A program made the position numbers and the translations under genes. From NCBI RefSeq assembly GCF_900110255.1, contig NZ_FODD01000004.1, forward strand, positions 62,001 to 126,000: a DNA stretch of 64,000 nucleotides. Reading direction: 5' to 3'. Below, piece by piece: positions 19,917-36,250 of the stretch. Under the pieces are notes generated by a model, which was not told the origin of the DNA, made no database searches, and saw only the letters and a list, made by a program, of their open reading frames with translations. Every line of letters begins with the position of its first letter. Positions within the stretch are counted from its first letter, which is position 1. The DNA comes from Actinacidiphila rubida. GTDB lineage: Bacteria > Actinomycetota > Actinomycetes > Streptomycetales > Streptomycetaceae.

Positions 19917-21446
19917 ATGACCGACGACTACCTCGCACGTATCGGCAGGCTCATCCGTGACGCACGGCAGCACCGTGGCTGGACTCAGGCGCAACTCGCC
20001 GAAGCGCTGAGCACCAGCCAGAGCGCCGTCAACCGTATCGAACGAGGCAATCAGAACATCAGCCTTGAGATGATCGCGCGTATCGGCGAGGCACTGGACA
20101 GCGAGATCGTCTCGCTCGGCTACGCCGGGCCGATGCATCTGCGCGTCGTCGGCCGCCGGCGGCTGTCCGGCTCGATCGACGTCAAGACGAGCAAGAACGC
20201 GTGCGTGGCGCTGCTGTGCGCGACGCTGCTGAACGCCGGGCGCACCACGCTGCGCCGCGTCGCGCGGATCGAGGAGGTCTACCGGATCCTCGAGGTGCTC
20301 GGCAGCATCGGCGTCCGCACCCGCTGGATCAACGACGGCAACGACCTGGAGATCGTGCCGCCGGCCGAGCTGCAGCTCGACGCGATGGACACCGAGGCCG
20401 CCCGCCGCACCCGCAGCGTCATCATGTTCCTCGGCCCGCTGCTGCACCGCACCGACCGCTTCCGCATCCCGTACGCGGGCGGCTGCGACCTGGGCACCCG
20501 CACGGTGCAGCCGCACATGAACGCGCTGCGCCACTTCGGGCTCGACGTCACCGCCACCGACGGCTCGTACCACGCCGTCGTGGAGCGGGACATCGTGCCG
20601 AACCGGCCGATCGTGCTGACCGAGCGCGGCGACACCGTGACGGAGAACGCGCTGCTGGCCGCCGCCCGCCACGAGGGCGTCACCGTCATCCGCAACGCCA
20701 GCTCCAACTACATGGTCCAGGACCTGTGCTTCTTCCTGGAGGAGCTGGGCGTGCGGGTCGAGGGCATCGGCACCACCACCCTCACCGTCTACGGCACCGG
20801 CCACATCGACCGCGACGTGGACTACGCGCCGTCCGAGGACCCGGTCGAGGCGATGAGCCTGCTGGCCGCGGCCGTGGTCACCGAGTCGGAGCTGACGATC
20901 CGCCGGGTGCCGATCGAGTTCATGGAGATCGAGCTCGCGGTCCTGGAGGAGATGGGCCTGGACCACGAGCTGACCCCGGAGTACCGCGCGGACAACGGCC
21001 GCACCCGGCTGGTCGACCTCACGGTGCGGCCGTCCAAGCTCAGCTCGCCCATCGACAAGATCCACCCGATGCCGTTCCCCGGCATCAACATCGACAACGT
21101 GCCCTTCTTCGCGGCGATCGCGGCCACCGCCCAGGGCTCGACGCTCATCCACGACTGGGTCTACGACAACCGCGCGATCTACCTGACGGAGCTGACCCGG
21201 CTGGGCGCCCAGGTCAAACTGCTGGACCCGCACCGGGTCCTGGTCGAGGGCCCGACCCGGTGGCGGGCCGCCGAGATGATGTGCCCGCCCGCGCTGCGCC
21301 CCGCCGTCGTCGTGCTGCTGGCGATGATGGCCGCCGAGGGCACGTCCGTGCTGCGCAACGTCTACGTCATCAACCGCGGCTACGAGGACCTGGCCGAGCG
21401 CCTCAACTCGATCGGCGCGCAGATCGAGACGTTCCGCGACATCTGA
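19917..21446 (+). CDS. XRE-type HTH fused to UDP-N-acetylglucosamine 1-carboxyvinyltransferase (MurA-like)
   Basis: Encodes 509 residues. Residues 5-62 are an XRE helix-turn-helix (LIRDARQHRGWTQAQLAEALSTSQSAVNRIE). Residues 72-505 are an EPSP-synthase/MurA fold. Residues needed by MurA are kept: K93-N94 (TSKNA), the PEP-binding cysteine C190 in YAGGCDLGTRTVQPH, and R487 in INRGYEDL. MurA transfers enolpyruvate from PEP to UDP-GlcNAc, the first committed step of peptidoglycan synthesis; most MurA proteins have about 420 residues and no HTH. The fusion could make a PEP- or UDP-GlcNAc-responsive regulator or a second MurA. A similar gene next to aconitase is known in S. coelicolor (SCO5998, annotated as a MurA paralog). 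Enzyme activity is inferred. Confidence 0.88.
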   Translation: MTDDYLARIGRLIRDARQHRGWTQAQLAEALSTSQSAVNRIERGNQNISLEMIARIGEALDSEIVSLGYAGPMHLRVVGRRRLSGSIDVKTSKNACVALLCATLLNAGRTTLRRVARIEEVYRILEVLGSIGVRTRWINDGNDLEIVPPAELQLDAMDTEAARRTRSVIMFLGPLLHRTDRFRIPYAGGCDLGTRTVQPHMNALRHFGLDVTATDGSYHAVVERDIVPNRPIVLTERGDTVTENALLAAARHEGVTVIRNASSNYMVQDLCFFLEELGVRVEGIGTTTLTVYGTGHIDRDVDYAPSEDPVEAMSLLAAAVVTESELTIRRVPIEFMEIELAVLEEMGLDHELTPEYRADNGRTRLVDLTVRPSKLSSPIDKIHPMPFPGINIDNVPFFAAIAATAQGSTLIHDWVYDNRAIYLTELTRLGAQVKLLDPHRVLVEGPTRWRAAEMMCPPALRPAVVVLLAMMAAEGTSVLRNVYVINRGYEDLAERLNSIGAQIETFRDI

Positions 21447-22852: not shown

Positions 22853-23671
22853 ATGCGTACGGATCCTGTGGACTGGCCGGGCCTCGCCGGCGACGGCTTC
22901 CCGTTCCCCAGCCGCCTGCCCGCGGATGAACTCGCCGCGGAACTGGCGGAGATGCTGGTGTCGCCCGACCCGCGGGTGCGGGACGACCACGCCTACACCG
23001 CGGCCGCGCGGTGGATCCGGGCGGGGCACCTGGACGCGGTGCTGGCGGCGATGGGCGACACCGCGGCGGAGCGTCTCGGGCATCCCGACGTCCAGGCGCG
23101 CACGTTCGCGCCGCTGATCCTCACGCGCGTGCTGGCCCGCGGACGGGACGTGCCGGGTGCGGTGCCCGAGCCGGCAGTGCGCCGCTGGTACGCGGCGTTC
23201 ACCGCCTGGTTCCCGGCCGAGACCGACACCCGGGGCTGGGACGACGCGCTGGGCTGGCTGCACGCCGTGGCCCACGGCGCCGACGCCGCCGCGGCGTTCG
23301 CCGCCGCGCTGCCCGACCGCCGCACCGAGCTGCTGGAGACGTGCGCGCGCCGGATGACGGCGGGCGGCACCGCCCACCGCTACGTCCAGTTGGAGGACGC
23401 CCGCCTGGCCGCGGCGATCACCCGCGTCCTGCTCGCGCCCGGCCTGGACGCGGCCCAGGCCACCGGCTGGCTGGACGTCGTCATGGCGGCGTTCGAGGGC
23501 GGCGGCCCCGGTGCCGTCCCGCCGTGGGCGTTCAACACGTTCGCCACGCTCCAGTCCCTGCACCTGCACCTGAACCGCGGCCTGGCCGACGGCGGCGTGC
23601 CGCCACACGCCGGCGCGGTGTCGGCGCGGGTGCTGGAGGTGCTGCGGCTGCCCTACGGCTGGCTGGGCTGA
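22853..23671 (+). CDS. DUF2785 family protein
   Basis: Encodes 272 residues. The N-terminal block with LLVSPDPRVRDDHAYTAAARWIRAGHLD-like sequence, the central RWYAAFTAWFPAETDTRGWDDALGWLHAVAHGADA and the C-terminal helices match the all-helical DUF2785 family, whose function is unknown. No signal peptide, membrane helix or catalytic motif is seen. The ATG at 22853 has only a weak AGGGTGG site; the frame is open further upstream without a better start. The last 19 bases overlap the end of the convergent RidA gene. Confidence 0.75.
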   Translation: MRTDPVDWPGLAGDGFPFPSRLPADELAAELAEMLVSPDPRVRDDHAYTAAARWIRAGHLDAVLAAMGDTAAERLGHPDVQARTFAPLILTRVLARGRDVPGAVPEPAVRRWYAAFTAWFPAETDTRGWDDALGWLHAVAHGADAAAAFAAALPDRRTELLETCARRMTAGGTAHRYVQLEDARLAAAITRVLLAPGLDAAQATGWLDVVMAAFEGGGPGAVPPWAFNTFATLQSLHLHLNRGLADGGVPPHAGAVSARVLEVLRLPYGWLG

Positions 23672-24096
23672 ACCGGCGGTCCCGGCAGCACGGCGATGCC
23701 GTCGAGTTCGATCAGGGCCTCCTCGTCCCACAGGCGGACCACGCCCACCAGCGCCATCGCGGGGTAGTCCCGGCCCGCCGACTCCCGCCAGATCCGGCCG
23801 AGTTCGGGGGCGTGCGCCCGGTACGCGGCGACGTCGGTGGTGTAGACGGTGACGCGTGCCAGGTCGGCCGGGGTGCCGCCGGCGGCGCGCAGCGCGGTCA
23901 GCAGGTTGGCCAGCGCGCGGGCGAACTGGGCGGGGAGGCCGTCCCCGGTGACGACGCCGTCCGCGTCCAGCGCGGTCTGCCCGGCGAGCATGACGAGGGT
24001 GCCGCCGGTCGCGGTGACCGCGTGGGAGAAGCCGCTCGGCGGGGCGAGCCCGGGCGGGTTGACGCGGTGCAGGGCCGGCCGTGAGATGTCGGTCAT
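23653..24096 (-). CDS. RidA-family enamine/imine deaminase
   Basis: Encodes 147 residues of the YjgF/YER057c/UK114 (RidA) fold. Seen are GTLVMLAGQTALDADGVV (strand and turn), the helix QFARALANLLTALRAAGG, VTVYTTDVAAY and the C-terminal YPAMALVGVVRLWDEEALIELDGIAV, which has the family pattern but Val-Arg-Leu where RidA itself has a conserved Arg before leucine. RidA proteins hydrolyse reactive enamines or imines to ketones and ammonia. Its start overlaps the acyl-CoA dehydrogenase stop (ATGA), placing it in the aminobenzoyl-CoA catabolic island. There it could deaminate the 2-amino-cyclohexenecarboxyl-CoA made by ring reduction. Confidence 0.85.
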   Translation of the reverse strand: MTDISRPALHRVNPPGLAPPSGFSHAVTATGGTLVMLAGQTALDADGVVTGDGLPAQFARALANLLTALRAAGGTPADLARVTVYTTDVAAYRAHAPELGRIWRESAGRDYPAMALVGVVRLWDEEALIELDGIAVLPGPPVQPSQP

Positions 24097-25406
24097 CGGT
24101 ACAGCTCCCGGGCGATGATGGTGCGCTGGACTTCGCTGGCGCCCTCGTAGATCCTCGGTGCCCGCACTTCGCGGTACAGGTGTTCCAGCAGGTGGCCGCG
24201 GCGCAGGGCGCGGGCGCCGTGGATCTGCACGGCCGTGTCGACCGCGAACTGCGCGGTCTCGGTGGCGTAGAGCTTGGCCATCGCCGCACGTGCGGTGACG
24301 TCGGGAGCGCCCGCGTCGTACGCGGCGGCCGCCGCGTACACCAGCAGGCGGGCGGCCTCGACGCGGGTGGCCGTCTCGGCCAGCGGGTGGGACACCGCCT
24401 GCAGGTCCTTCAGCGGTCCGCCGAACGCGGTGCGTTCCCCCGCGTGGGCGACCGCCGCGTCGAGCGCGGCCTGCGCCATGCCGACCGCGAACGCGCCGAC
24501 GCTGGGCCGGAAGAGGTCGAGGGTGCCCATCGCCACCCGGAAGCCGTGGGCCTCCTCGCCGAGCAGGTCGTCGGTGCCGACCGGCACCCCGTCGAAGTCC
24601 AGGCGCCCGATCGGGTGCGGGGAGAGCATGTCGAGCGGCTCGCCGGACAGGCCGGGCCGGTCGGCGGGGACGGCGAACGCGGTGACGCCGCGGGCGCCGG
24701 CGCCGGGCCGGGTGCGGGCGAACACCGTGTAGACGTCGGCCTCGGGCGCGTTGGAGATCCAGCACTTCTCACCGGTCAGCCGCCAGCGGCCGGGGCCGTC
24801 CGGTTCCGCGGCCAGGCGGAGGGCGCCGGCGTCGGAGCCCGCGGCCTCCTCGCTGAGCGCGAAGGCGGCGACCGCCCGTCCGGCCGCGACCTCCGGCAGC
24901 CAGCGGGCGGCGATCGCGGGCGCGTGGAGCAGCGGGTGGGCGCCGAGGCCCTGGAGGGCCAGCGCGGTCTCCGCCTCGGTGCACTCGCGGGCCAGCGACT
25001 CGCGCAGTACGCACAGGTCCAGCGCGGAGGGTGGCCGGCCGGCGGGCAGGGCGCGGGCGATCAGCCCGGCGTCGGCGAGCCCGGCGAGCAGCGCCCGGTT
25101 CACCCGGCCGGGCGCGCGGGCGGGTACGGAGGGGGCCGAGGGGGCGGACGGTGCCATGGTGGACGTGACGGCCAGCCCGCCGGAGCCCCCGGTCCCGGCG
25201 CCGGCCCGGGCCTCGGCGCCGCCCTCCGCTCCGGTCCCGGGCGAAGCTCCGGTCCCGGCGCGGGCCTTGGCACCGGGGTCGTCGAACATCTCGGTGGCCA
25301 GCGGACGCAGCCGTTCCCGCGCGATCGCCCGCACCTCCTCGGCCCACGCGGCGCGGGCCGGATCGAGCCCGAATCGGGCAACGGGGTGCTCAGAAGAATC
25401 CATCAC
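24093..25406 (-). CDS. Acyl-CoA dehydrogenase
   Basis: Encodes 437 residues with the three-domain acyl-CoA dehydrogenase plan. It has the N-terminal helical domain, the middle beta domain with AFALSEEAAGSDAGAL and WRLTGEKCWISNAPEADVYTVFARTRP (FAD and substrate contacts), and the C-terminal four-helix bundle with QIHGARALRRGHLLEHLYREVRAPRIYEGASEVQRTIIAREL, which includes the usual catalytic-Glu area IYEG. A low-complexity Ala/Gly/Pro insert at about residues 45-85 is unusual. It is transcribed with RidA and divergently from the CoA ligase. A likely role is to oxidise a cyclic acyl-CoA intermediate of aminobenzoate breakdown. A second ATG at 25403 is equally possible as start. Confidence 0.9.
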   Translation of the reverse strand: MMDSSEHPVARFGLDPARAAWAEEVRAIARERLRPLATEMFDDPGAKARAGTGASPGTGAEGGAEARAGAGTGGSGGLAVTSTMAPSAPSAPSVPARAPGRVNRALLAGLADAGLIARALPAGRPPSALDLCVLRESLARECTEAETALALQGLGAHPLLHAPAIAARWLPEVAAGRAVAAFALSEEAAGSDAGALRLAAEPDGPGRWRLTGEKCWISNAPEADVYTVFARTRPGAGARGVTAFAVPADRPGLSGEPLDMLSPHPIGRLDFDGVPVGTDDLLGEEAHGFRVAMGTLDLFRPSVGAFAVGMAQAALDAAVAHAGERTAFGGPLKDLQAVSHPLAETATRVEAARLLVYAAAAAYDAGAPDVTARAAMAKLYATETAQFAVDTAVQIHGARALRRGHLLEHLYREVRAPRIYEGASEVQRTIIARELYR

Positions 25407-25428
25407 TCACACCCTTATCGCGTTCAGT

Positions 25429-25440
25429 TGACTGTCGTCA
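25429..25440. promoter_or_regulatory. 12-bp dyad in the divergent dehydrogenase/ligase promoter
   Basis: TGACTGTCGTCA (TGAC-TGTC-GTCA) lies between the divergent acyl-CoA dehydrogenase and CoA-ligase genes. The same 12-mer in the same orientation occurs at 31222-31233 upstream of the enoyl-CoA hydratase gene of this island. It is a good candidate operator for the local PaaX-like regulator. Confidence 0.6.
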
Positions 25441-25498
25441 TGAACACGTTACGCTGAAAACCGTCCGCCTTCAGGTGCCGACGAGGGGCTCTGCCGCC

Positions 25499-27097
25499 AT
25501 GGACCTGGACCTGCTGCCGTCAGCCCATGTGGACACGTTCACGCGCGACCACCTGCCCCCGCCGGACCGGTGGCCGGTGCTGGAGAACATCCCGGACTAC
25601 CCCGAACGGCTCAACTGCGCGGCCGAGTTGCTGGCCGGCGGCGCGCCGGACGCGGTGTGCCTGCGGACCCCGGACGGGCAGAGCTGGACGTACGGGGAGC
25701 TGCGGGCGCGCTCGGCGCGGATCGCGCACGTGCTGACCGGCGAGCTGGGCGTCGTGCCCGGCAACCGGGTGCTGCTGCGCGGGCCGACCACCCCGTGGCT
25801 GGTGGCCTGCTGGATGGCGGTGCTGCAGGCGGGCGCGGTCGCGGTGACGGTCCTCGCGGCCCAGCGGGCGCACGAGTTGGCGGACGTCTGCGACATCGGG
25901 CAGGTGCGGTACGCGCTGTGCGACCACCGCTTCACCGGCGAGCTGGTCAAGGCCGCGGTCCCGGACCTGCGGATCGTCCCGTACGGCGGAGGCGGCGACG
26001 ACGACCTGCTGCGGCGGGCGCAGGACCGGCCGGACTCCTACGACGCGGTGCCGACGTCGTGCGACGACGTGGCGCTGATCGCCTTCACCTCCGGCACCAC
26101 CGGGCGCCCCAAGGGCTGCCTCCATTTCCACCGGGACGTGCTGGCGATCGCCGACACCTTCTCCGCGACGGTGCTGCGGCCGTCGGCCGACGACCTGTTC
26201 ACCGGCAGCCCGCCGCTGGGCTTCACCTTCGGCCTCGGTGGCCTGGTGGTCTTCCCGATGCGCGTCGGGGCCTCCTCGCTGCTGCTGGAGAAGGCCGGGC
26301 CGGCCGAGCTGCTGGCCGCCGTCGCGGACCAGCGGGTGACGGTGCTGTTCACCGCGCCGACCGCGTACCGGGCGATGCTCGCCGAGGCCGACGCGTACGA
26401 CCTGACGAGCCTGCGGCGGTGCGTGTCCGCGGGCGAGAACCTGCCGGCCGCGACCTGGCAGGCCTGGTACGACCGGACGGGGCTGCGGCTGATCAACGGG
26501 ATCGGGGCCACGGAGATGCTGCACATCTTCATCTCCGCGGCCGGCCAGGAGGCACGCCCCGGCGCGACCGGCCGGCCGGTCCCGGGGTACGCGGCGCGGA
26601 TCGTGGACGCCGCCCTGCAGCCGGTGCCGGACGGGCAGCCGGGTCTGCTGGCGGTGCGCGGCCCGACCGGCTGCCGCTATCTGGCCGACGAGCGGCAGCG
26701 GGAGTACGTGCGCGCCGGGTGGAACCTCACCGGCGACACCTACGTCCGGGACATCGACGGCTGGTACCGCTACGTGGCGCGGGCCGACGACATGATCATC
26801 TCGGCGGGCTACAACATCGCGGGTCCGGAGGTCGAGGAGACGCTGCTGCGCCATCCGGACGTCGTGGAGGCCGCGGTGATCGGCGTGCCCGACGACGAAC
26901 GCGGCCAGGTGGTCAAGGCGTTCGTGGTGCTGCGGGAGGGCGTGCCGGCGGACGACGCCACGGTGGCGGAGCTGCGGCGGTTCGCCAAGAGCGTGATGGT
27001 GCCGTACAAGTGCCCGCGCGAGTTCCGCTTCCTGCCCGGCCTGCCCCGCACGCCCACCGGCAAGCTGCAGCGCTTCCGGCTGCGCGACGCGACGTGA
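25499..27097 (+). CDS. 2-aminobenzoate-CoA ligase type AMP-binding enzyme
   Basis: Encodes 532 residues of the ANL adenylate-forming superfamily. Core motifs: A3 FTSGTTGRPKG (near residue 195), A5 NGIGATEMLHIF (near 335), A7/A8 LTGDTYVRDIDGWYRYVARADDMIISAGYNIAGPEVE (410-440) and the catalytic lysine in PTGKLQRF near the end. The segments LHFHRDVLAIADTF and GSPPLGFTFGLGGLVVFP are those of 2-aminobenzoate- and benzoate-CoA ligases. It would activate anthranilate or a similar arylic acid with ATP and CoA. The ATG at 25499 follows GAGGGG; a GTG 24 bases earlier is the alternative. The PaaX-like regulator follows 22 bp downstream. Confidence 0.87.
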   Translation: MDLDLLPSAHVDTFTRDHLPPPDRWPVLENIPDYPERLNCAAELLAGGAPDAVCLRTPDGQSWTYGELRARSARIAHVLTGELGVVPGNRVLLRGPTTPWLVACWMAVLQAGAVAVTVLAAQRAHELADVCDIGQVRYALCDHRFTGELVKAAVPDLRIVPYGGGGDDDLLRRAQDRPDSYDAVPTSCDDVALIAFTSGTTGRPKGCLHFHRDVLAIADTFSATVLRPSADDLFTGSPPLGFTFGLGGLVVFPMRVGASSLLLEKAGPAELLAAVADQRVTVLFTAPTAYRAMLAEADAYDLTSLRRCVSAGENLPAATWQAWYDRTGLRLINGIGATEMLHIFISAAGQEARPGATGRPVPGYAARIVDAALQPVPDGQPGLLAVRGPTGCRYLADERQREYVRAGWNLTGDTYVRDIDGWYRYVARADDMIISAGYNIAGPEVEETLLRHPDVVEAAVIGVPDDERGQVVKAFVVLREGVPADDATVAELRRFAKSVMVPYKCPREFRFLPGLPRTPTGKLQRFRLRDAT

Positions 27098-27119
27098 CCC
27101 TGCCACATAAAGTGACCGT

Positions 27120-27938
27120 GTGACCGCCGATCCGCGCCCCGCCCACACGCCCGGTTCGCTCATCCTCAGCTTCTACGGCGCCTACGGCCGCTCCGAGCTG
27201 GGCGGCACCGTCCCGGTGGCGCTGCTGATCAGGCTGATGGGCGCGGCGGACGTGGACGCGCCGTCGGTGCGCTCGGCGGTGTCGCGGCTGAAGCGGCGTG
27301 GCCTGCTGGTGGCGCGCCGGGAGGAGGGCGCCGCCGCGTACGGGCTGTCCGAGGACGCGCGGCAGCTGCTCGCCGACGGCGACCGGCGGATCTACGGGAC
27401 GAGGCCCGCGGAGGACGCGGACTGGCTGCTCGCCGTGTTCTCGGTGCCGGAGTCGGAGCGGGCCAGGCGGCACGTGCTGCGCTCACGGCTGGCCGGGCTG
27501 GGCTTCGGCCAGGCGGCGCCGGGCGTGTGGATCGCGCCGGCCGCCCTGCACGAGGAGACCCGGCACGCCCTGGACCGCCTGGGCCTGGCCGCGTACGTCG
27601 ACCTGTTCCGCGGCACGCACGCCGGTTTCGAGCCGACCGCCCGCGCGGTGCGCAGGTGGTGGGACCTGGACGCGCTGGCGGACCTGCACCGCGCGTTCCT
27701 GGCCGCCCAGGAGCCGGCGCTGGCCCGCTGGTCGGAGCGGCCGCCGAGCCCGGACCTGGCCTTCCGCGACTACCTGCGGGCCCTGGACTCCTGGCGGCGG
27801 CTGCCCTACGCCGACCCCGGACTGCCACCGGCGCTGCTGCCCGCGGACTGGCCGGGCGCGCGCTCGGCTGAGGTGTTCGACGCGCTGCACTCCCTGCTGC
27901 GCGACCGCGGCGCGCGGTTCGTGCGCGACGAGGAATGA
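27120..27938 (+). CDS. PaaX-family transcriptional regulator
   Basis: Encodes 272 residues from a GTG with a weak site. The N-terminal winged helix has SLILSFYGAYGR and DVDAPSVRSAVSRLKRRGLLVARREEGAAAYGLSEDARQLL, the PaaX signature; the middle CRISPR-Cas2-like ferredoxin domain carries DWLLAVFSVPESERARRHVLRSRLAGLGFGQAAPGVWIAP; the C-terminal helical part ends the family pattern. PaaX proteins repress phenylacetate and other aryl-CoA catabolic genes and are released by the aryl-CoA. Here the ligand is likely the CoA ester made by the upstream ligase, with which it forms an operon. Confidence 0.88.
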   Translation: MTADPRPAHTPGSLILSFYGAYGRSELGGTVPVALLIRLMGAADVDAPSVRSAVSRLKRRGLLVARREEGAAAYGLSEDARQLLADGDRRIYGTRPAEDADWLLAVFSVPESERARRHVLRSRLAGLGFGQAAPGVWIAPAALHEETRHALDRLGLAAYVDLFRGTHAGFEPTARAVRRWWDLDALADLHRAFLAAQEPALARWSERPPSPDLAFRDYLRALDSWRRLPYADPGLPPALLPADWPGARSAEVFDALHSLLRDRGARFVRDEE

Positions 27939-28025
27939 CGGAGCCGACGGCACCCGCACAGAAGGGGCCGGCGGGCCGCACCCACCGCACGAGCCGCCCG
28001 GGTCGCCGGGGTCGCTTGCGGTTCC

Positions 28026-30353
28026 TCAACCGTCCAGCGTGAGGCGGGGCTTGGGGGCGTCGGTGCGGCCGGTCGGGGGCGGTCGCCGGCCGGCCAGGTA
28101 GGACGGCGGCCAGGGGGCGGCCGGTCCCTCGTAGCCCTGCTCGGCCGCGGCGTGCAGCGTCCAGTGCGGGTCGTACAGGTGCGGGCGGGCCAGCGCGCAC
28201 AGGTCGGCGCGGCCCGCCAGCAGCAGGGAGTTGACGTCGTCCCACGACGAGATGGCGCCGACCGCGATGACCGGCAGCCCCGTCGCGTTGCGGATGCGGT
28301 CGGCGAACGGCGTCTGGTAGGAGCGGCCGAACGCCGGGGCCTCGTCGGCGACGACCTGCCCGGTGGACACGTCGACGGCGTCGGCACCGTGCGCCGCCAG
28401 CGCGCGGGCGATCTCCACCGCGTCGTCACCCGAAGTGCCGCCGTCGGCCCAGTCGGTGGCGGAGATCCGGACGCTCAGGGGGCGGTCGCCCGGCCACACC
28501 CGCCGTACCGCGTCGAGCACGTCGAGGGGGAAGCGCAGCCGGCCGGCGAGGTCGCCGCCGTAGGCGTCGGTGCGGTGGTTGGTGAGCGGGGAGAGGAAGG
28601 AGGACAGCAGGTAGCCGTGGGCGCAGTGCAGTTCGAGCAGGTCGAAGCCGGCGCGGGCGCCGCGTTCGGCGGCGGCGGCGAACTGGTCGCGGATGCGGGC
28701 GAGTCCGGCCTGGTCGAGCGCGTGCGGCACCTGGTTGACGCCGCTCCGGTAGGGCAGTGCGGACGGCGCGACGACCGGCCAGTTGCCGTCGGGCAGCGGC
28801 TGGTCGATGCCCTCCCACATCAGGCGGGTGGAGCCCTTGCGGCCGCTGTGGCCGAGTTGCAGCCCGACGGCCGCGCCCTGCCCGGAGGCGTGCACGAAGT
28901 CGGCGACGCGGCGCCAGGCCGCCTCCTGCTCGTCGGACCACAGGCCGGTGCAGCCCGGGGTGATGCGCCCTTCGGGACTCACGCACACCATCTCGGTCAT
29001 CACCAGGCCGGCGCCGCCCAGCGCCCGCGCGCCCAGGTGGACGAGGTGGAAGTCGCCGGGCAGGCCGTCGCGCGCGGTGTACAGGTCCATCGGCGAGACG
29101 ACGACGCGGTTGCGCAGGGTCAGGCCGCGCAGGGTGAACGGGGTGAACATCGGCGGCGTGCCGGGCGGGGCGCCGAACGCGGCCTCCACGGTGTCGGTGA
29201 ACTCCCGGTCGCGCAGCCGCAGATTGTCGTGGGTGACGCGGCGGCTGCGGGTGAGCAGGTTGAACGCGAACTGCAGCGGCGGCTGGTCGACATACTGGGC
29301 GATCCGCTCGAACCACTCCGAGCTGGCCAGCGCCGCCCGCTGGGTGCTCGCCACGACCGGGCGGCGCTCGGCCTCGTACGCGGCGAGCGCGGTGCCGGTG
29401 TCCGGGTGCTCACGCAGGCAGGCGGCGAGCGCCAGGGCGTCCTCCATGGCCAGTTTGGTGCCGGAGCCGATGGAGAAGTGCGCGGTGTGCGCGGCGTCGC
29501 CGAGCAGCACCGTGTTCCCGTGCCGCCAGCGGTCGTTGACGACGGTGGTGAAGTACTGCCAGCGCGAGCGGTTGCCGCGCAGCGGGCGGCCGTCGAGGAC
29601 CTGGGCGAACAGCTTCTCGCAGGCGGCGATGCTGCCGGCCTCGTCCAGCGCGTCGAACCCGGCGCGCCGCCACACGTCCTCGGCCATCTCGACGATGAAG
29701 GTGGCGGCGTCGGCACGGTAGGGGTAGGCGTGCGCCTGCATCACGCCGTGCGGGGTCTGCAGGATCTCGAACCGAAAGGCGTCCAGCGGGAGTTCGGCGG
29801 AGAGCCAGATGTAGCGGCAGCCGTGCGGGGTCAGATGGGGGCCGAACGCGTCGGCGTGCCCGGCGCGGGTGGCGCTGCGCGCGCCGTCGGCGGCGACCAC
29901 GAGGTCGTACGCGGCGGCGAGTGCGGCGGCCGGCGGCGCCGGGGTGCGGACATGGACCCGCACGCCGAGAGCGCGGCAGCGCTCGGCGAGCAGCACGAGC
30001 AGCCGGCGCCGGTCGAGGGCGGCGAAACCGTGGCCGCCGCTGCGGACCGCGCGGCCGCGGTGGTGGATCTCGATGTCCTGCCAGCGGACGAACTCCCGCT
30101 GCACGGCATCGTGCAGGACCGGGTCGGCCTGGGCGATGCCGCCGAGGGTCTCGTCGGAGAACACGACGCCGAAGCCGAAGCTGTCCTCGGGGGCGCCGCG
30201 CTCCCAGACGGTCACCGAGCGGTCCGGGTCGAGGCGTTTGAGCAGGGCGGCGGCGTAGAGGCCGCCGGGTCCGCCGCCGACGACGGCGACCCGCAGGCCG
30301 GTGTTCGGACCCGCGTCCGGGACGGTGTCCGGGCCGGCGGCGGGCCCGGTCAC
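28026..30353 (-). CDS. Fused FAD monooxygenase/old-yellow-enzyme (2-aminobenzoyl-CoA monooxygenase/reductase type)
   Basis: Encodes 775 residues in two halves. Residues 20-385 are a class-A flavin monooxygenase: GGGPGG (26-31), DRRRLLVLL and LLGDAAHTAHFSIGSGTKLAMEDALALA (near 285, the second FAD motif). Residues 400-760 are an NADH:flavin oxidoreductase barrel (old yellow enzyme): FTLRGLTLRNRVVVSPMDLY, FDLLELHCAHGYLLSSFLSPLTNHRTDAYGG and the phosphate-site segments VIAVGAIS and ADLCALARPHLYDP. This fusion is known for 2-aminobenzoyl-CoA monooxygenase/reductase of Azoarcus and for salicylyl-CoA 5-hydroxylase-type proteins. It hydroxylates the ring and reduces it. The GTG at 30353 lies two bases after the hydratase stop with GGGAAGG upstream; a GTG at 30371 is possible. 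Confidence 0.88.
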   Translation of the reverse strand: MTGPAAGPDTVPDAGPNTGLRVAVVGGGPGGLYAAALLKRLDPDRSVTVWERGAPEDSFGFGVVFSDETLGGIAQADPVLHDAVQREFVRWQDIEIHHRGRAVRSGGHGFAALDRRRLLVLLAERCRALGVRVHVRTPAPPAAALAAAYDLVVAADGARSATRAGHADAFGPHLTPHGCRYIWLSAELPLDAFRFEILQTPHGVMQAHAYPYRADAATFIVEMAEDVWRRAGFDALDEAGSIAACEKLFAQVLDGRPLRGNRSRWQYFTTVVNDRWRHGNTVLLGDAAHTAHFSIGSGTKLAMEDALALAACLREHPDTGTALAAYEAERRPVVASTQRAALASSEWFERIAQYVDQPPLQFAFNLLTRSRRVTHDNLRLRDREFTDTVEAAFGAPPGTPPMFTPFTLRGLTLRNRVVVSPMDLYTARDGLPGDFHLVHLGARALGGAGLVMTEMVCVSPEGRITPGCTGLWSDEQEAAWRRVADFVHASGQGAAVGLQLGHSGRKGSTRLMWEGIDQPLPDGNWPVVAPSALPYRSGVNQVPHALDQAGLARIRDQFAAAAERGARAGFDLLELHCAHGYLLSSFLSPLTNHRTDAYGGDLAGRLRFPLDVLDAVRRVWPGDRPLSVRISATDWADGGTSGDDAVEIARALAAHGADAVDVSTGQVVADEAPAFGRSYQTPFADRIRNATGLPVIAVGAISSWDDVNSLLLAGRADLCALARPHLYDPHWTLHAAAEQGYEGPAAPWPPSYLAGRRPPPTGRTDAPKPRLTLDG

Positions 30354-30355
30354 GG

Positions 30356-31183
30356 TCAGCGGCCTTCCCACTCGGGTTCGCGCCGTGCGGTGAACGCGGC
30401 GTGGAACTCGGCGTAGTCGGCGCTGGTCATCAGCAGCGCCTGGGCGGCGGCGTCCATCTCGACGGCGGCGCCGAGCGGCATGTCGAGTTCCGCGGTGAGC
30501 AGCGCCTTGGTCTGGCGGTAGGCCAGCGCGGGGCCGTCGGCGAGCTTCCGGGCCAGGGCCGCGGCGGCCGCGTGCGCGCCGCCCTCCGGCGCGGTCTGGC
30601 TGACCAGCCCGATCCGCTCGGCCTCCGCCGCGTCGACCGCGTCGCCGAGCATCAGCAGCCGGGTGGCGTGGCCGAGGCCGACCAGGCGCGGCAGCAGGTA
30701 GGCGGCGCCCATGTCGGCGCCGGCCAGTCCGACGCGGGTGAACAGGAACGCGAAGCGGGCGCCGGGTTCGACGATCCGGAAGTCCGAGGCGAGCGCCAGG
30801 ACCGCGCCGGCCCCGGCGGCCACGCCGTGCACGGCGGCGATGACGGGGAACGGGGCCTCGCGGATGGCGCGGACGACCTGGCCGGTCATGCGGGTGAAGT
30901 CCAGCAGTTCGCCGGCGCTCATGGCGAGCGTGGCGCCGATGATCTCCTCCACGTCACCGCCGGAGCAGAAGCCGCGGCCGGCGCCGCCGAGCACCAGGGC
31001 GCGGGTGTCGCCCTCGCGGGCCAGCTCGGCGAGCAGGTCGCGCAGGTCGGCGTAGGCGCCGAAGGTGAGGGCGTTGAGCCGGTCGGGACGGTCGAGCGTG
31101 ACGGTGGCGACGCCCTCGGAGCGGTCCAGGCGCAGATGGCGCCAGTGGCCGGTGGGGCTCGCGGAGCTGGGGTGCGGACTCAT
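30356..31183 (-). CDS. Enoyl-CoA hydratase/isomerase
   Basis: Encodes 275 residues of the crotonase family. The oxyanion-hole segments are visible as RGFCSGGDVEEI (near residue 70) and VAAGAGAVLALASDFRIVEPGARFAFLFTRVGLAGADMGAAYLLPRLVG (120-165). The position of one catalytic Glu is Asp or Gly in this last segment (GLAGADMG), as in several crotonase subfamilies that act on cyclic or aromatic acyl-CoAs. A strong GAGGAGG site precedes the ATG. It is the first gene of an operon with the fused oxygenase/reductase; its promoter holds the shared TGACTGTCGTCA dyad. A hydration or ring-opening step after ring reduction fits. Confidence 0.88.
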   Translation of the reverse strand: MSPHPSSASPTGHWRHLRLDRSEGVATVTLDRPDRLNALTFGAYADLRDLLAELAREGDTRALVLGGAGRGFCSGGDVEEIIGATLAMSAGELLDFTRMTGQVVRAIREAPFPVIAAVHGVAAGAGAVLALASDFRIVEPGARFAFLFTRVGLAGADMGAAYLLPRLVGLGHATRLLMLGDAVDAAEAERIGLVSQTAPEGGAHAAAAALARKLADGPALAYRQTKALLTAELDMPLGAAVEMDAAAQALLMTSADYAEFHAAFTARREPEWEGR

Positions 31184-31221
31184 GGCGCGGCCTCCTCGCG
31201 CTCGACGGTATCACCAGTTCG

Positions 31222-31233
31222 TGACTGTCGTCA
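31222..31233. promoter_or_regulatory. Second copy of the 12-bp dyad, hydratase promoter
   Basis: TGACTGTCGTCA, identical to 25429-25440, lies 39 bp upstream of the enoyl-CoA hydratase start. A downstream GTAACGC resembles GTTACGC that follows the first copy. Confidence 0.6.
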
Positions 31234-31291: not shown

Positions 31292-32290
31292 TCAGCCCAG
31301 GGTGGCGACCATGATCGCCTTGATGGTGTGCATGCGGTTCTCCGCCTGGTCGAACACCACGGAGCGCGGGGACTCGAAGACCTCGTCCGAGACCTCGAGG
31401 AAGTCCAGGCCGTGGCGGGCGTGGATGTCCCGGCCGACGGTGGTGCCCAGGTCGTGGAAGGCCGGCAGGCAGTGCAGGAAGGTGGCCTCGGGGTTGCCGG
31501 TGGCGCGCATGACGTCGGCGGTGACGGCGTAGGGGCGCAGCAGCGCGATCCGCTCGTCCCAGATCTCCTTGGGCTCGCCCATCGAGACCCACACGTCGGT
31601 GTGGATGTGGTCGGCGCCGCTGACGCCCTCCTCCACGTCGTCGGTGAGGGTGATGCGGGCACCGGAGCTCTCGGCGACCCGGCGCGCCTCGGCGACGACG
31701 TCGGCGTCGGGCCACAGGCCCTGCGGCGCGGCGATGCGCACGTCCATGCCGAGCAGCGCGCCGGTGACCAGCAGGGAGTTGCCCATGTTGGAGCGGGCGT
31801 CGCCGAGGTAGGCGTAGGCGATCTCGCCGAGCGGCTTGGGGTTGTGCTCGGTCATGGTGAGGACGTCGGCGAGCATCTGGGTGGGGTGCCACTCGTCGGT
31901 GAGGCCGTTCCACACCGGCACACCGGCGTGCGCGGCCAGCTCCTCGACGACGGTCTGGCCGTGGCCGCGGTACTGGATGCCGTCGAACATCCGGCCCAGG
32001 ACGCGCGCGGTGTCCTTGACCGACTCCTTGTGGCCGATCTGCGAGCCGGACGGGTCGAGGTAGGTGGAGGAGGCGCCCTGGTCGGCGGCGGCCACCTCGA
32101 ACGAGCACCGGGTGCGGGTGGAGGTCTTCTCGAAGACCAGCGCGATGTTCTTCCCGCGCAGCCGCTGCTGCTCGGCGCCCGCCTTCTTGGCGGCCTTGAG
32201 CTCCGCGGCCAGGTCCACCAGGGAGCGGAACTCCTCGGCGGTGAAGTCCAGCTCCTTCAGGAAGTGCCGGCCCTTGAGGTCGACGGCCAT
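31292..32290 (-). CDS. argF: Ornithine carbamoyltransferase
   Basis: Encodes 332 residues, full length. The carbamoyl-phosphate signature [12 protein letters not shown] (near residue 56), the HPTQMLAD segment (near 134), ornithine-binding DVWVSMGE and [10 protein letters not shown] (near 273) are all present. It makes citrulline from ornithine and carbamoyl phosphate, or runs in reverse in the arginine deiminase route. It follows the arginine deiminase gene on the same strand with a 116-bp gap that holds an AT-rich island, so it may have its own promoter. No carbamate kinase or arginine/ornithine antiporter gene is nearby. Confidence 0.95.
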
Positions 32291-32353
32291 GCGGATACTC
32301 CTATGGTGCGTACGGTGCGGTGCGCGCTCGGCGGACGCGGGAACACTGGAACC

Positions 32354-32379
32354 CTATACGATAGTCAGCATTCTTATAC
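32354..32379 (-). promoter_or_regulatory. AT-rich promoter island upstream of argF
   Basis: About 26 bp with TATAC repeated at both ends and little GC, 65-90 bp before the argF start, in a region otherwise above 70% GC. It is the likely promoter, and ArgR-type boxes are AT-rich, but the match to a known ARG box is poor. Confidence 0.35.
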
Positions 32380-32406
32380 ACCCCCTTCTCGGCTGGCGGA
32401 CGACGG

Positions 32407-33630
32407 TCAGACGGCCTCCCGCTCGACCGGGCAGCTCATGCAGCGCGGCCCGCCGCGGCCGCGGCCCAGCTCGCTGCCGGGGATCTCGATGACCTCGATG
32501 CCGCGCTTGCGCAGGAAGGTGTTGGTGGTCGCGTTGCGCTCGTAGGCGACGACCACGCCCGGCTCCACGGCCAGCACGTTGCAGCCGTCGTCCCACTGCT
32601 CGCGCTCGGCGGAGTGCACGTCCTGGGTGGCGGTGAGCACCGTGATCATGTCCAGGCCGAGGGCCGCCGCGATCGCGCGGTGCATGTGCTCCGGCGGGTG
32701 GTCGGTGACCTTCAGCTCGCCCGGCTCGGCGCCCGGCTCGATGGTGTAGGAGCGGAGCATGCCCAGGCCCGCGTACTGGGTGAAGGTGTCCCCGTCGACC
32801 ATCGTCATGACCGTGTCCAGGTGCATGAACGCCCGCGCCTTGGGCATGTCCAGCGCCACGATGGTCTGTGCGGACCCGGTCGCGAACAGGCCGCGGGCCA
32901 GCATCTCCACCGCCTGCGGGGTGGTGCGCTCGCTCATCCCGATGAGCACCGCGCCGCGCCCGATCACCAGCACGTCGCCGCCTTCTATGGTCGACGGGTA
33001 GGCGCTCTGGCCCTCGGACCACACGTGGAAACCGCCGCCCGCGAACAGCGGGTGGTGCCGGTAGATCGCCTCGAAGTGCACGGTCTCGCGCTGCCGCGCC
33101 GGCCAGCGCATCGCGTTGATGCTCACGCCGTCGTACACCCACGCCGAGGTGTCGCGGGTGAACAGGTGGTTGGGCAGCGGGCTGAGCAGGAAGTCGTCCA
33201 GGTCCATGGCGTGGAACAGCACGGACACCGGCTCGGGGAAGCGCTCCAGGTACTCGCGCTTGGTCATGCCGCCGACCAGCGCCTCGGTCAGCTCGGCCGG
33301 GGCCAGCTCGTCGAAGGCGGCCCGCAGCCGGTCGGTGGCGAGCGGCCCGTACTCCTTCTCGTGGAACACCCGGTCGAGAACCAGCCGCCGCGCCTCGGGC
33401 ACCGCCAGCGACTCCGCGAGCAGGTCCCCGAACAGGTGGACCTGCACTCCGCGGTCGCGCAGCACGTCGGCGAAGCCGTCGTGCTCGGCGCGCGCCCGGC
33501 GCACCCACAGCAGGTCGTCGAAGAGCAGCGCGTCCTTGTTGCTGGGGGTCAGGCGCTTCAGCTCGAGGTCCGGGCGGTGCAGGATGACGCTGCGCAGCCG
33601 CCCGGCCTCGGAGTCGACGTGGAATCCCAT
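32407..33630 (-). CDS. arcA: Arginine deiminase
   Basis: Encodes 407 residues, the usual ADI length. It hydrolyses arginine to citrulline and ammonia. Catalytic elements are present: [18 protein letters not shown] and [27 protein letters not shown] in the guanidine-modifying fold, the catalytic His in [16 protein letters not shown] (near residue 278) and the nucleophilic Cys in [13 protein letters not shown] near residue 397. The ATG at 33630 starts the family-typical [20 protein letters not shown]. With argF downstream, citrulline could be phosphorolysed to ornithine and carbamoyl phosphate. A hairpin separates it from the RNA-repair gene upstream. Confidence 0.95.
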
Positions 33631-33697: not shown

Positions 33698-36250
33698 TCA
33701 CAGCCGCGGGTCGACCGGCTCCGACTCCAGCGCGAGGACCGCGAACACCGCCTCGTGGACGCGCCACAGCGGTTCGCCGCCCGCCAGCCGGTCCAGGGCC
33801 TCCAGGCCGAGGGCGTACTCGCGCAGCGCCAGCGACCGCTTGTGTCCCAGCGACCGGCCGCGCAGCCGTGCCAGGTGCTCGGGTCGGGTGTACTCCGGGC
33901 CGTAGATGATCCGCAGGTACTCCCGGCCGCGGCACTTGACGCCCGGCTGCACGAGCCGCCCGGACTCCGTCCGTGCCAGCGCCGCGAGCGGCTTGACGAC
34001 CATGCCCTCACCACCCGCGGCGGTCAGGTCCAGCCACCAGTCCGTGCCGGCCGCCACCGACGCCTCGTCCCCGGTGTCGACGACCAGCCGCCGGGTGGTG
34101 CGCAGCAGCCCGCTGGGGTCGGCCTCCACCAGCCGGTCCAGCAGCGCGAGCTGCTGGTCGTGCGGCAGCCCGGCCAGGCTGCGGCCCTGCACCGCGAGCA
34201 GCTGGAACGGCGCGAGGTGCACGCCCTCCAGGCCGTCCGTGGTCCAGCAGTAGCGGCCGTAGGCGTCGGTGAACGCGCCCGCGTCGGCGGCGCGTTCACG
34301 CTGCCTGCCCAGCAGCGGGGACACCTCGGCGCCGCGGCCCGCGGCGGCCTCCAGCGCGGCCAGCGCCGGCGGGAAGACCGCGCCCGCGGCCGCGCCGACC
34401 GCCGCGTACTGGCGGCGCAGCAGCCCGGACGCCTTCAGCGACCAGGGCAGCAGCTCGGCGTCGAGCAGCAGCCAGCCGGTGCCGAACTCCTCCCACAGGC
34501 CGGCGGCCGTCGCGGCCGCCCGCAGCCGGGCCAGCACCTCCTCGGTGACCTGGGGGTCGTCGAAGAACGGCCGCCCGGTGCGGGTGTGCAGCGCGCCGGT
34601 CACGCCCCGGGTGCCGAACCGTTCGGCGGCCGCCTCCTCGTCGCGGCACACCAGGGCGACCGCCCGGGAGCCCATGTGCTTCTCCTCGCACACCACGTGC
34701 CGCACGCCGTCCTCGCGGTAGGCGGCGAACGCCTCCCGCGGGTGCTCCAGGTAGCCGTCCCGCAGGGACGTGGCGCACGGCGCCATCGTCGGCGGCAGGT
34801 AGGCCAGCAGCCGCGGGTCGACGGCGAACCGGCTCATCACCTCCAGCGCCGCCGCCGCGTTCTCCTCGCGCACGGCGAGCCGTCCCATGGCGGAGGTCTC
34901 CACCACGCGCCGGCCCGCGACGTCCGCGAGGTCCAGCGGGCGGCCCTCCCGGCCGCCGGGTGCCTCCGTCTGCAGCGGCTTGGCCGGCTCGTACCAGACC
35001 CGCTCAGCCGGCACGTCGACGATCTCTCGCTCCGGCCAGCGCAGCGCGGTCAGGCGGCCGCCGAACACCGCGCCGGTGTCCAGGCACAGGGTGTTGTTGA
35101 TCCACGAGGTGCGCGGCACCGGGGTGTGGCCGTAGACCACGGCGGCGCGGCCGCGGTAGTCCTCGGCCCACGGGTAGCGCACGGGCAGGCCGAACTCGTC
35201 GGTCTCGCCGGTGGTGTCGCCGTACAGGGCGTGCGAGCGCACCCGGCCCGAGGTGCGGCCGTGGTACTTCTCCGGCAGGCCGGCGTGGCAGACCACGAGC
35301 CGGCCGCCGTCCAGCACGTAGTGGCTGACCAGGCCGTCCACGAAGGTGCGCACCCGCTCGCGGAACTCCGGGTCCCGGGCGTCCTCGCGGGTGAACTGCT
35401 CGATGGTCTCGGCCAGGCCGTGGGTGTGCTGGACGGCGCGGCCCTTGAGCCAGCGCCCGAGCTTGTTCTCGTGGTTGCCGGGCACGCACAGCGCGGTGCC
35501 CGCCTCGACCATGCCCATGACGCGGCGCAGCACGCCGGGGCTGTCCGGGCCGCGGTCGACCAGGTCGCCGACGAACACGGCGGTGCGGCCCTCGGGGTGC
35601 GCCCCGTCGCGGTAGCCGAGCTTCGCCAGCAGCGTGTCCAGCTCGGAGCTGCAGCCGTGCACGTCGCCGATGATGTCGAACGGGCCGGTGAGGTGGGCCA
35701 GGTCGTTGTACCGGCGCTCGGTGACGATCCGGGCGGCGTCGATCTCCGCGGTGCCGCGCAGCACGTGCACCTTGCGGAAGCCCTCGCGCTCCAGACCGCG
35801 CAGGGAGCGGCGCAGCTCGCGCTGGTGCCGCTGGATGACGTGGCGGGGCATCCCGGCCCGGTCGGGGCGGGCGGCGTTGCGCTCGGCGCACACCTGCTCG
35901 GGCACGTCGAGGACGATCGCGATGGGCAGCACGTCGTACTCGCGGGCCAGCCTGACCAGCTGCCGGCGGGACTCGGGCTGGACGCTCGTCGCGTCGACGA
36001 CGGTACGGCGGCCGGCCGCCAGCCGCTTGCCGGCGATGTAGTGGAGCACATCGAACGCGTCGGAGCTGGCGCTCTGGTCGTTCTCGTCGTCGCTGACCAG
36101 GGCGCGGCAGAAGTCCGACGAGATCACCTCGGTCGGCGTGAAGTGCCGGGCGGCGAACGTGGACTTGCCCGATCCGGTGGCTCCGATCAGCACGACCAGG
36201 GACAGGTCGGTGACGGGCAGGGTGCGGACGGCGGCGGACTGCTCGGTCAT
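33698..36250 (-). CDS. pnkp: Polynucleotide kinase-phosphatase (bacterial RNA repair)
   Basis: Encodes 850 residues with the three catalytic modules of bacterial Pnkp. The 5'-kinase has P-loop GATGSGKST at 23-31. The binuclear metallophosphatase has [11 protein letters not shown] (near 195), [12 protein letters not shown] and GNHENK. The C-terminal adenylyltransferase has motif I EKHMGSR (near 520), where the lysine takes AMP. Bacterial Pnkp removes 2',3'-cyclic phosphate, phosphorylates 5' ends and, only together with Hen1, seals cut RNA such as ribotoxin-cleaved tRNA. Its ATG overlaps the Hen1 stop by four bases, so the pair is translationally coupled. The length and order match the Clostridium thermocellum-type protein. 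Confidence 0.95.

What the first reader, a model, noticed from the sequence alone, without database searches (positions are those of the whole stretch)
23653..31233. CoA-dependent 2-aminobenzoate (anthranilate) island with a built-in RidA deaminase
The ligase, the fused monooxygenase/old-yellow-enzyme, the hydratase, the acyl-CoA dehydrogenase and a PaaX-like regulator sit together. The fusion is known (Azoarcus) to turn 2-aminobenzoyl-CoA into 2-amino-5-oxo-cyclohexene-carboxyl-CoA, which is an enamine. A RidA protein, whose family hydrolyses enamines and imines, is translationally coupled to the dehydrogenase. I infer that RidA removes the amino group as ammonia, a step I do not know to be assigned to a gene in this route. 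Related salicylyl-CoA pathways exist in Streptomyces, so the aryl substrate could differ.
Basis: partly seen in the sequence, partly recalled or inferred. Interest (0 to 1): 0.75.

Follow-up and report, generated by a model that had tools for sequence, protein, structure and literature searches.

The report
Anthranilate-CoA island with conserved RidA partner
This Streptomyces-type gene cluster almost certainly breaks down anthranilate as its coenzyme A ester, and its small RidA protein turns out to be a near-constant partner of the key enzyme across bacteria and haloarchaea, which makes it the best candidate for the unassigned step that removes the amino group.

Summary
RidA, acyl-CoA dehydrogenase, CoA ligase, PaaX-type regulator, fused monooxygenase/OYE and a crotonase lie at 23653-31183. 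RidA overlaps the dehydrogenase by 4 bp. Anthranilate is well supported as substrate: the ligase and fusion are 55% and 61% identical to Arthrobacter pAL1 proteins whose ligase was shown to be an anthranilate-CoA ligase (PMC3534580), and related clusters carry kynureninase or tryptophan dioxygenase. In 296 Actinomycetota genomes a distinct RidA type occurs in 36/36 genomes with the fusion and 5/260 without it, and those five carry it beside other pathway genes. It recurs in Pseudomonadota, Deinococcus and haloarchaea, and is absent from four checked clusters where the fusion sits with a gentisate-type dioxygenase. It is retained in lineages lacking the crotonase, so it probably acts right after the fusion. 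This RidA type is one clade that lacks the arginine held essential for imine hydrolysis: Met in 111 of 119 readable copies, never Arg. This fits a CoA-thioester substrate without a free carboxylate, but also means deaminase activity cannot be assumed. The activity itself is inferred, not shown.

The parts
23653..24096 (-). RidA-family protein, 147 aa, cluster type: Met114 at the place of E. coli RidA Arg105, Glu130 kept
   Evidence: Pfam PF01042 59 bits; fold Z 13-15.6 to RidA structures; residues; one clade with other cluster RidAs
24093..25406 (-). Acyl-CoA dehydrogenase, 437 aa, translationally coupled to RidA
   Evidence: PF00441/PF02770; 4-bp ATGA overlap
25475..27097 (+). Aryl-CoA ligase, probably 2-aminobenzoate (anthranilate)-CoA ligase, 540 aa
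   Evidence: Best solved match 4wv3 anthranilate-CoA ligase; 55% to the assayed Arthrobacter pAL1 ligase (PMC3534580); FTFG pocket motif shared with 4wv3
27120..27938 (+). PaaX-family transcriptional regulator, 272 aa
   Evidence: PF07848, PF20803, PF08223; TIGR02277 below cut-off
28026..30371 (-). Fused FAD monooxygenase / old yellow enzyme, 2-aminobenzoyl-CoA monooxygenase/reductase type, up to 781 aa
   Evidence: NF006101 over cut-off; 61% to Arthrobacter pAL1 protein
30356..31183 (-). Crotonase-family protein (PRK08258), PaaG-like Asp157, 275 aa
   Evidence: NF006107 over cut-off; closest characterised solved relative PaaG 4fzw; Asp157 invariant
25429..25440 (+). TGACTGTCGTCA, shared promoter site between dehydrogenase and ligase; candidate PaaX-type operator or promoter element
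   Evidence: Exact 12-mer occurs only twice in the window, both in cluster promoters; recurs in relatives
31222..31233 (+). TGACTGTCGTCA, the second copy, upstream of the crotonase-fusion operon

Best explanation
A catabolic island for anthranilate. Ligase: anthranilate to 2-aminobenzoyl-CoA. Fusion: monooxygenation and reduction to 2-amino-5-oxocyclohex-1-ene-1-carboxyl-CoA, an enamine thioester. RidA (cluster type, Met in place of Arg105): hydrolytic deamination to 2,5-dioxocyclohexane-1-carboxyl-CoA plus ammonia. The crotonase and dehydrogenase then open and oxidise the ring product, with general beta-oxidation enzymes finishing. PaaX probably controls both promoters. Ligase and fusion steps rest on homology to characterised enzymes; the RidA step is inferred from comparative genomics and chemistry; the order of later steps is conjecture.
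For: Ligase: best solved match is an anthranilate-CoA ligase; 55% identity to an assayed anthranilate-CoA ligase. Tryptophan-to-anthranilate genes sit in related clusters and the host genome has a kynureninase. RidA: 36/36 Actinomycetota genomes with the fusion versus 5/260 without, all five with pathway genes beside it; linked in at least 76 of 88 plasmid records with the fusion, counting one joined across a record start; kept unlinked in 8 of 9 Streptomycetaceae genomes that lack it in the cluster. Kept in two genomes without the crotonase but absent from four clusters with a gentisate-type dioxygenase. One clade, support 95/94, never Arg at position 105. The mass of a deaminated CoA ester was seen only in anthranilate-grown Arthrobacter.
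Against: No biochemistry. Arg105 is missing, and its mutation to Ala nearly abolishes activity in RidA proteins. The deaminated CoA ester in Arthrobacter was found after a formic acid quench, and the enamine is acid-labile, so it could be an artefact. The score cut for the RidA type was set after seeing a gap (98 to 114 bits), and related genomes are not independent. Unlinked Streptomyces RidA copies lack the shared promoter site.
Confidence: 0.66

Rival explanations
1. The crotonase (PRK08258), not RidA, removes the amino group, by adding water at the enamine carbon; RidA acts later, or helps as a tautomerase, chaperone or thioester-handling protein.
For: The crotonase is in 34/36 fusion genomes and is often directly beside RidA. 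RidA lacks the catalytic Arg.
Against: Two fusion genomes lack this crotonase family but keep RidA, as do the pAL1 and Rhodococcus BG43 loci. The crotonase resembles PaaG, with an invariant Asp, rather than a classical hydratase (my reading of the motif).
Confidence: 0.18
2. RidA is a protective scavenger: the pathway enamine hydrolyses by itself, and RidA only stops reactive imines from harming other enzymes.
For: Known damage-preemption role of the RidA subfamily; the pathway enamine is hydrolytically labile in acid.
Against: The genome has seven other RidA-family genes, yet this clade tracks the fusion exactly and is not the archetypal type.
Confidence: 0.13
3. The island degrades salicylate through salicylyl-CoA and gentisate, as the database name of the fusion says.
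For: NCBIfam name 'bifunctional salicylyl-CoA 5-hydroxylase/oxidoreductase'.
Against: No gentisate dioxygenase in the cluster; the OYE half is not needed to make an aromatic product; best ligase match is to anthranilate-CoA ligase; clusters with a gentisate-type dioxygenase lack RidA.
Confidence: 0.05
4. RidA belongs with the neighbouring ornithine carbamoyltransferase in carbamoyl phosphate metabolism.
For: RidA genes often cluster with carbamoyl phosphate genes; ornithine carbamoyltransferase and arginine deiminase flank the island in 77-78 of 80 relatives.
Against: RidA sits at the far end, coupled to the dehydrogenase; outside Streptomycetaceae it follows the fusion without those genes.
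Confidence: 0.03

Closest known systems
Aerobic 2-aminobenzoyl-CoA pathway of Azoarcus evansii (Schuhle et al. 2001; reviewed in PMC4539516)
   Same: Ligase, fused monooxygenase/reductase and beta-oxidation-type enzymes; the fusion family is shared
   Different: Actinobacterial gene order and PaaX regulator. Whether the Azoarcus clusters hold a RidA gene could not be checked: that paper is not in the library
Anthranilate-CoA cluster of Arthrobacter sp. Rue61a plasmid pAL1 (PMC3534580)
   Same: Ligase 55% and fusion 61% identical; PaaX regulators; cluster-type RidA 55% identical
   Different: No dehydrogenase or crotonase there; instead a fumarylacetoacetate-hydrolase-family protein, a small cupin and a thioesterase
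2-Aminomuconate deaminase AmnE (PMC6742747)
   Same: RidA-family deaminase in aromatic amine catabolism; same fold (6izh, Z 13.6)
   Different: Acts on a free dicarboxylate and keeps the cleft arginine (Arg117); ours has Met and a presumed CoA-ester substrate
RidA/YjgF imine hydrolases, Rid1-Rid7 scheme (PMC4433059)
   Same: Fold and conserved Glu
   Different: Lacks the Arg of RidA and Rid1-3; forms its own clade here

Membership tests
2-aminobenzoyl-CoA (anthranilate) degradation clusters | Full-length fusion of FAD monooxygenase and old yellow enzyme | tested here: met
   NF006101 over cut-off; PF01494 and PF00724
2-aminobenzoyl-CoA (anthranilate) degradation clusters | Anthranilate-CoA ligase | tested here: inconclusive
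   By sequence yes; substrate not assayed
2-aminobenzoyl-CoA (anthranilate) degradation clusters | Product 2-amino-5-oxocyclohex-1-ene-carboxyl-CoA | not testable with these tools
   Needs enzyme assay
RidA/YjgF/YER057c/UK114 family | PF01042 domain and the RidA fold | tested here: met
   59 bits over cut-off 27.3; VIA Z 13-15.6 to RidA chains; trimer not tested
Imine-hydrolysing RidA and Rid1-Rid3 subfamilies | Arginine equivalent to E. coli RidA Arg105 | tested here: not met
   Met114 in the window; M111 I4 L2 V1 T1 in the clade, never Arg
Imine-hydrolysing RidA and Rid1-Rid3 subfamilies | Conserved Glu120 | tested here: met
   Glu130 invariant in A1 and A2
Salicylyl-CoA 5-hydroxylase / gentisate pathway | Gentisate 1,2-dioxygenase with the hydroxylase | tested here: not met
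   None in the cluster; present in L102, L190-L192, which lack RidA
PaaX phenylacetate repressor | TIGR02277 equivalog score | tested here: not met
   136.5 bits, cut-off 264.6: PaaX family, not PaaX itself

The most novel reading that the evidence does not exclude
Probability: 0.58. Interest if true: 0.72.

Novelty: new variant of a known kind. Interest (0 to 1): 0.6.

Why it matters
The deaminating step of a widespread anthranilate, tryptophan and auxin breakdown route has no gene in the papers I could read. A perfect phylogenetic match to a small, easily purified protein makes it directly testable. The protein also breaks the accepted rule that a Rid protein needs the cleft arginine, and would explain why: the arginine grips a carboxylate that a CoA thioester does not have. 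The curated database model names the fusion 'salicylyl-CoA 5-hydroxylase', which hides the pathway in genome annotations.

Tried and rejected
A shared regulatory site before the unlinked RidA copies was sought and not found. Salicylate was considered and set aside. The dioxygenase-bearing clusters were first taken as salicylate controls; one (L191) also holds indolepyruvate oxidoreductase genes and a cyclase-family gene, so their substrate is open and I call them only 'gentisate-type ring cleavage'. Literature searches for a RidA assignment in this pathway found none, but the library lacks most subscription papers; Schuhle et al. 2001 is not held. No Azoarcus plasmid was among the plasmid records listed. 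The place of the clade in the Rid1-Rid7 scheme could not be fixed without the CDD models.

Full report
What is there. The window lies in a 9.0 Mb, high-GC actinobacterial genome of the Streptomyces family. At 23653-31183 six genes form two divergent transcription units plus a separate operon: ligase and PaaX-family regulator rightward from 25475; dehydrogenase and RidA leftward from 25406; crotonase and fusion leftward from 31183. RidA overlaps the dehydrogenase stop by 4 bp. The 12-mer TGACTGTCGTCA occurs exactly twice in the window, once in each of the two cluster promoters, and its core recurs in the same promoters of relatives; it may be the PaaX-type operator or part of the promoters.

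Conservation. Eighty related loci from other genomes, all Streptomycetaceae as far as their titles tell, keep the gene set: crotonase 80, ligase 76, dehydrogenase 75, PaaX 72, RidA 64; 7 of the 16 RidA-less loci are cut by contig ends. In the 9 others, 8 genomes carry the same RidA type elsewhere at 148-156 bits, and the ninth has a copy with an internal stop. Those unlinked copies have no pathway genes beside them and no copy of the promoter site, yet keep the clade's residues.

Substrate. The ligase's best solved relative is an anthranilate-CoA ligase (4wv3), ahead of benzoate-CoA ligases. It is 55% identical to an Arthrobacter pAL1 ligase shown by assay to make anthraniloyl-CoA. It shares the FTFG segment with 4wv3 where benzoate ligases have FAYG. 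Related clusters carry kynureninase and tryptophan dioxygenase (Thalassospira), kynureninase and indoleamine dioxygenase (Haladaptatus) or tryptophan dioxygenase (Ruegeria); similar hits recur in Actinomycetota. The host genome has a kynureninase. The salicylate name given by NCBIfam is therefore probably misleading. In Cupriavidus a 2-aminobenzoyl-CoA gene cluster is reported as vital for anthranilate degradation (PMC6221969).

RidA as a pathway member. I built a profile from 12 cluster RidA proteins and searched the same 296 Actinomycetota genomes for the fusion and for RidA. RidA scores split into two groups (114 bits and more; 98 and less). All 36 genomes with the fusion have the high group; 5 of 260 others do. 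Those five carry it beside dehydrogenase, crotonase, ligase or a weaker fusion match. In 25 of 36 the two genes lie within 10 kb; the rest are mostly in fragmented drafts. A nominal hypergeometric value of 3e-41 is not a true probability, as the genomes are related and the cut was chosen after the fact. On plasmids, 75 of 88 listed fusion records have the RidA within 15 kb, plus one joined across a record start. The phyla include Pseudomonadota, Deinococcota and haloarchaea.

Where in the pathway. 34 of 36 fusion genomes also have the crotonase, but two do not, and they keep RidA with a fumarylacetoacetate-hydrolase-family protein, a small cupin and a thioesterase; the pAL1 and Rhodococcus BG43 loci look the same. 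Four clusters in which the fusion sits with a gentisate-type dioxygenase lack the RidA type; a whole-record search of those replicons found only weak RidA paralogs. Their chromosomes were not searched. So RidA follows both routes that process the dearomatised product but not the route that cleaves an aromatic ring. This points to the fusion product as its substrate.

Mechanism. The fusion product is an enamine of a beta-keto thioester. Hydrolysis gives a cyclohexanedione carboxyl-CoA; an ester of that formula was seen only in anthranilate-grown Arthrobacter cells, though after a formic acid quench of an acid-labile parent (PMC3534580). The predicted RidA fold is ordinary (pLDDT 85; Z 13-15.6). 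The difference is in the cleft: E. coli RidA Arg105 is replaced by Met in 111, Ile 4, Leu 2, Val 1, Thr 1 of the clade, never Arg, while the conserved Glu stays. That arginine binds substrate carboxylates and its loss nearly abolishes activity in known RidA proteins (PMC4433059). The aromatic-pathway relative AmnE, which acts on a free dicarboxylate, keeps it (PMC6742747). A CoA thioester has no free carboxylate, so a hydrophobic residue there is what one would expect; this is inference. The clade is one side of a branch with support 95/94 against 17 other Rid proteins.

The crotonase. Its closest solved relative is an uncharacterised structure (3g64, named a putative enoyl-CoA hydratase), then PaaG. 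Asp157 is invariant in its family, at the place of the PaaG Asp. I read it as an isomerase or ring-opening enzyme rather than a simple hydratase; this is not tested.

Judgement. The pathway is known. The conserved RidA partner, its clade and its lost arginine appear to be new, within the limits of an open-access library that lacks the original Azoarcus gene paper. Anthranilate as substrate: about 0.9. RidA as an integral pathway member: about 0.9. RidA as the deaminating enzyme: about 0.65.

Noticed in passing
window 31292-33618: Ornithine carbamoyltransferase and arginine deiminase flank the island in 77-78 of 80 relatives; the reason for this fixed neighbourhood is unknown.
   Followed up: partly
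window 33698-36250: An 850-aa polynucleotide kinase-phosphatase-ligase (PNKP_ligase, AAA_33, Metallophos domains), an RNA-repair type enzyme, lies next to the arginine genes.
   Followed up: no
window 19917-21446: A protein with an N-terminal helix-turn-helix domain fused to an EPSP synthase/MurA-type domain; a similar gene follows the dehydrogenase in Streptantibioticus loci that lack RidA there.
   Followed up: no
L102, L190, L191, L192: A second cluster type pairs the fusion with a gentisate/5-aminosalicylate-type dioxygenase and a fumarylacetoacetate hydrolase, without RidA and without the ligase; L191 also has indolepyruvate oxidoreductase genes and a cyclase-family gene.
   Followed up: partly
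L127-L139 and haloarchaeal L107: A shorter fusion subtype (about 716 positions, below the NCBIfam cut-off) in other Actinomycetota and haloarchaea, whose RidA has Ile, Leu, Val or Thr as well as Met at the lost arginine.
   Followed up: partly
L213 (G304): Streptomyces endophytica carries only a broken copy of the cluster-type RidA (internal TGA or frameshift), so either the pathway is decaying there or the assembly has an error.
   Followed up: no
window 55275: A one-mismatch copy of the shared promoter 12-mer (TGACGACGGTCA) lies outside the island; its gene context was not examined.
   Followed up: no
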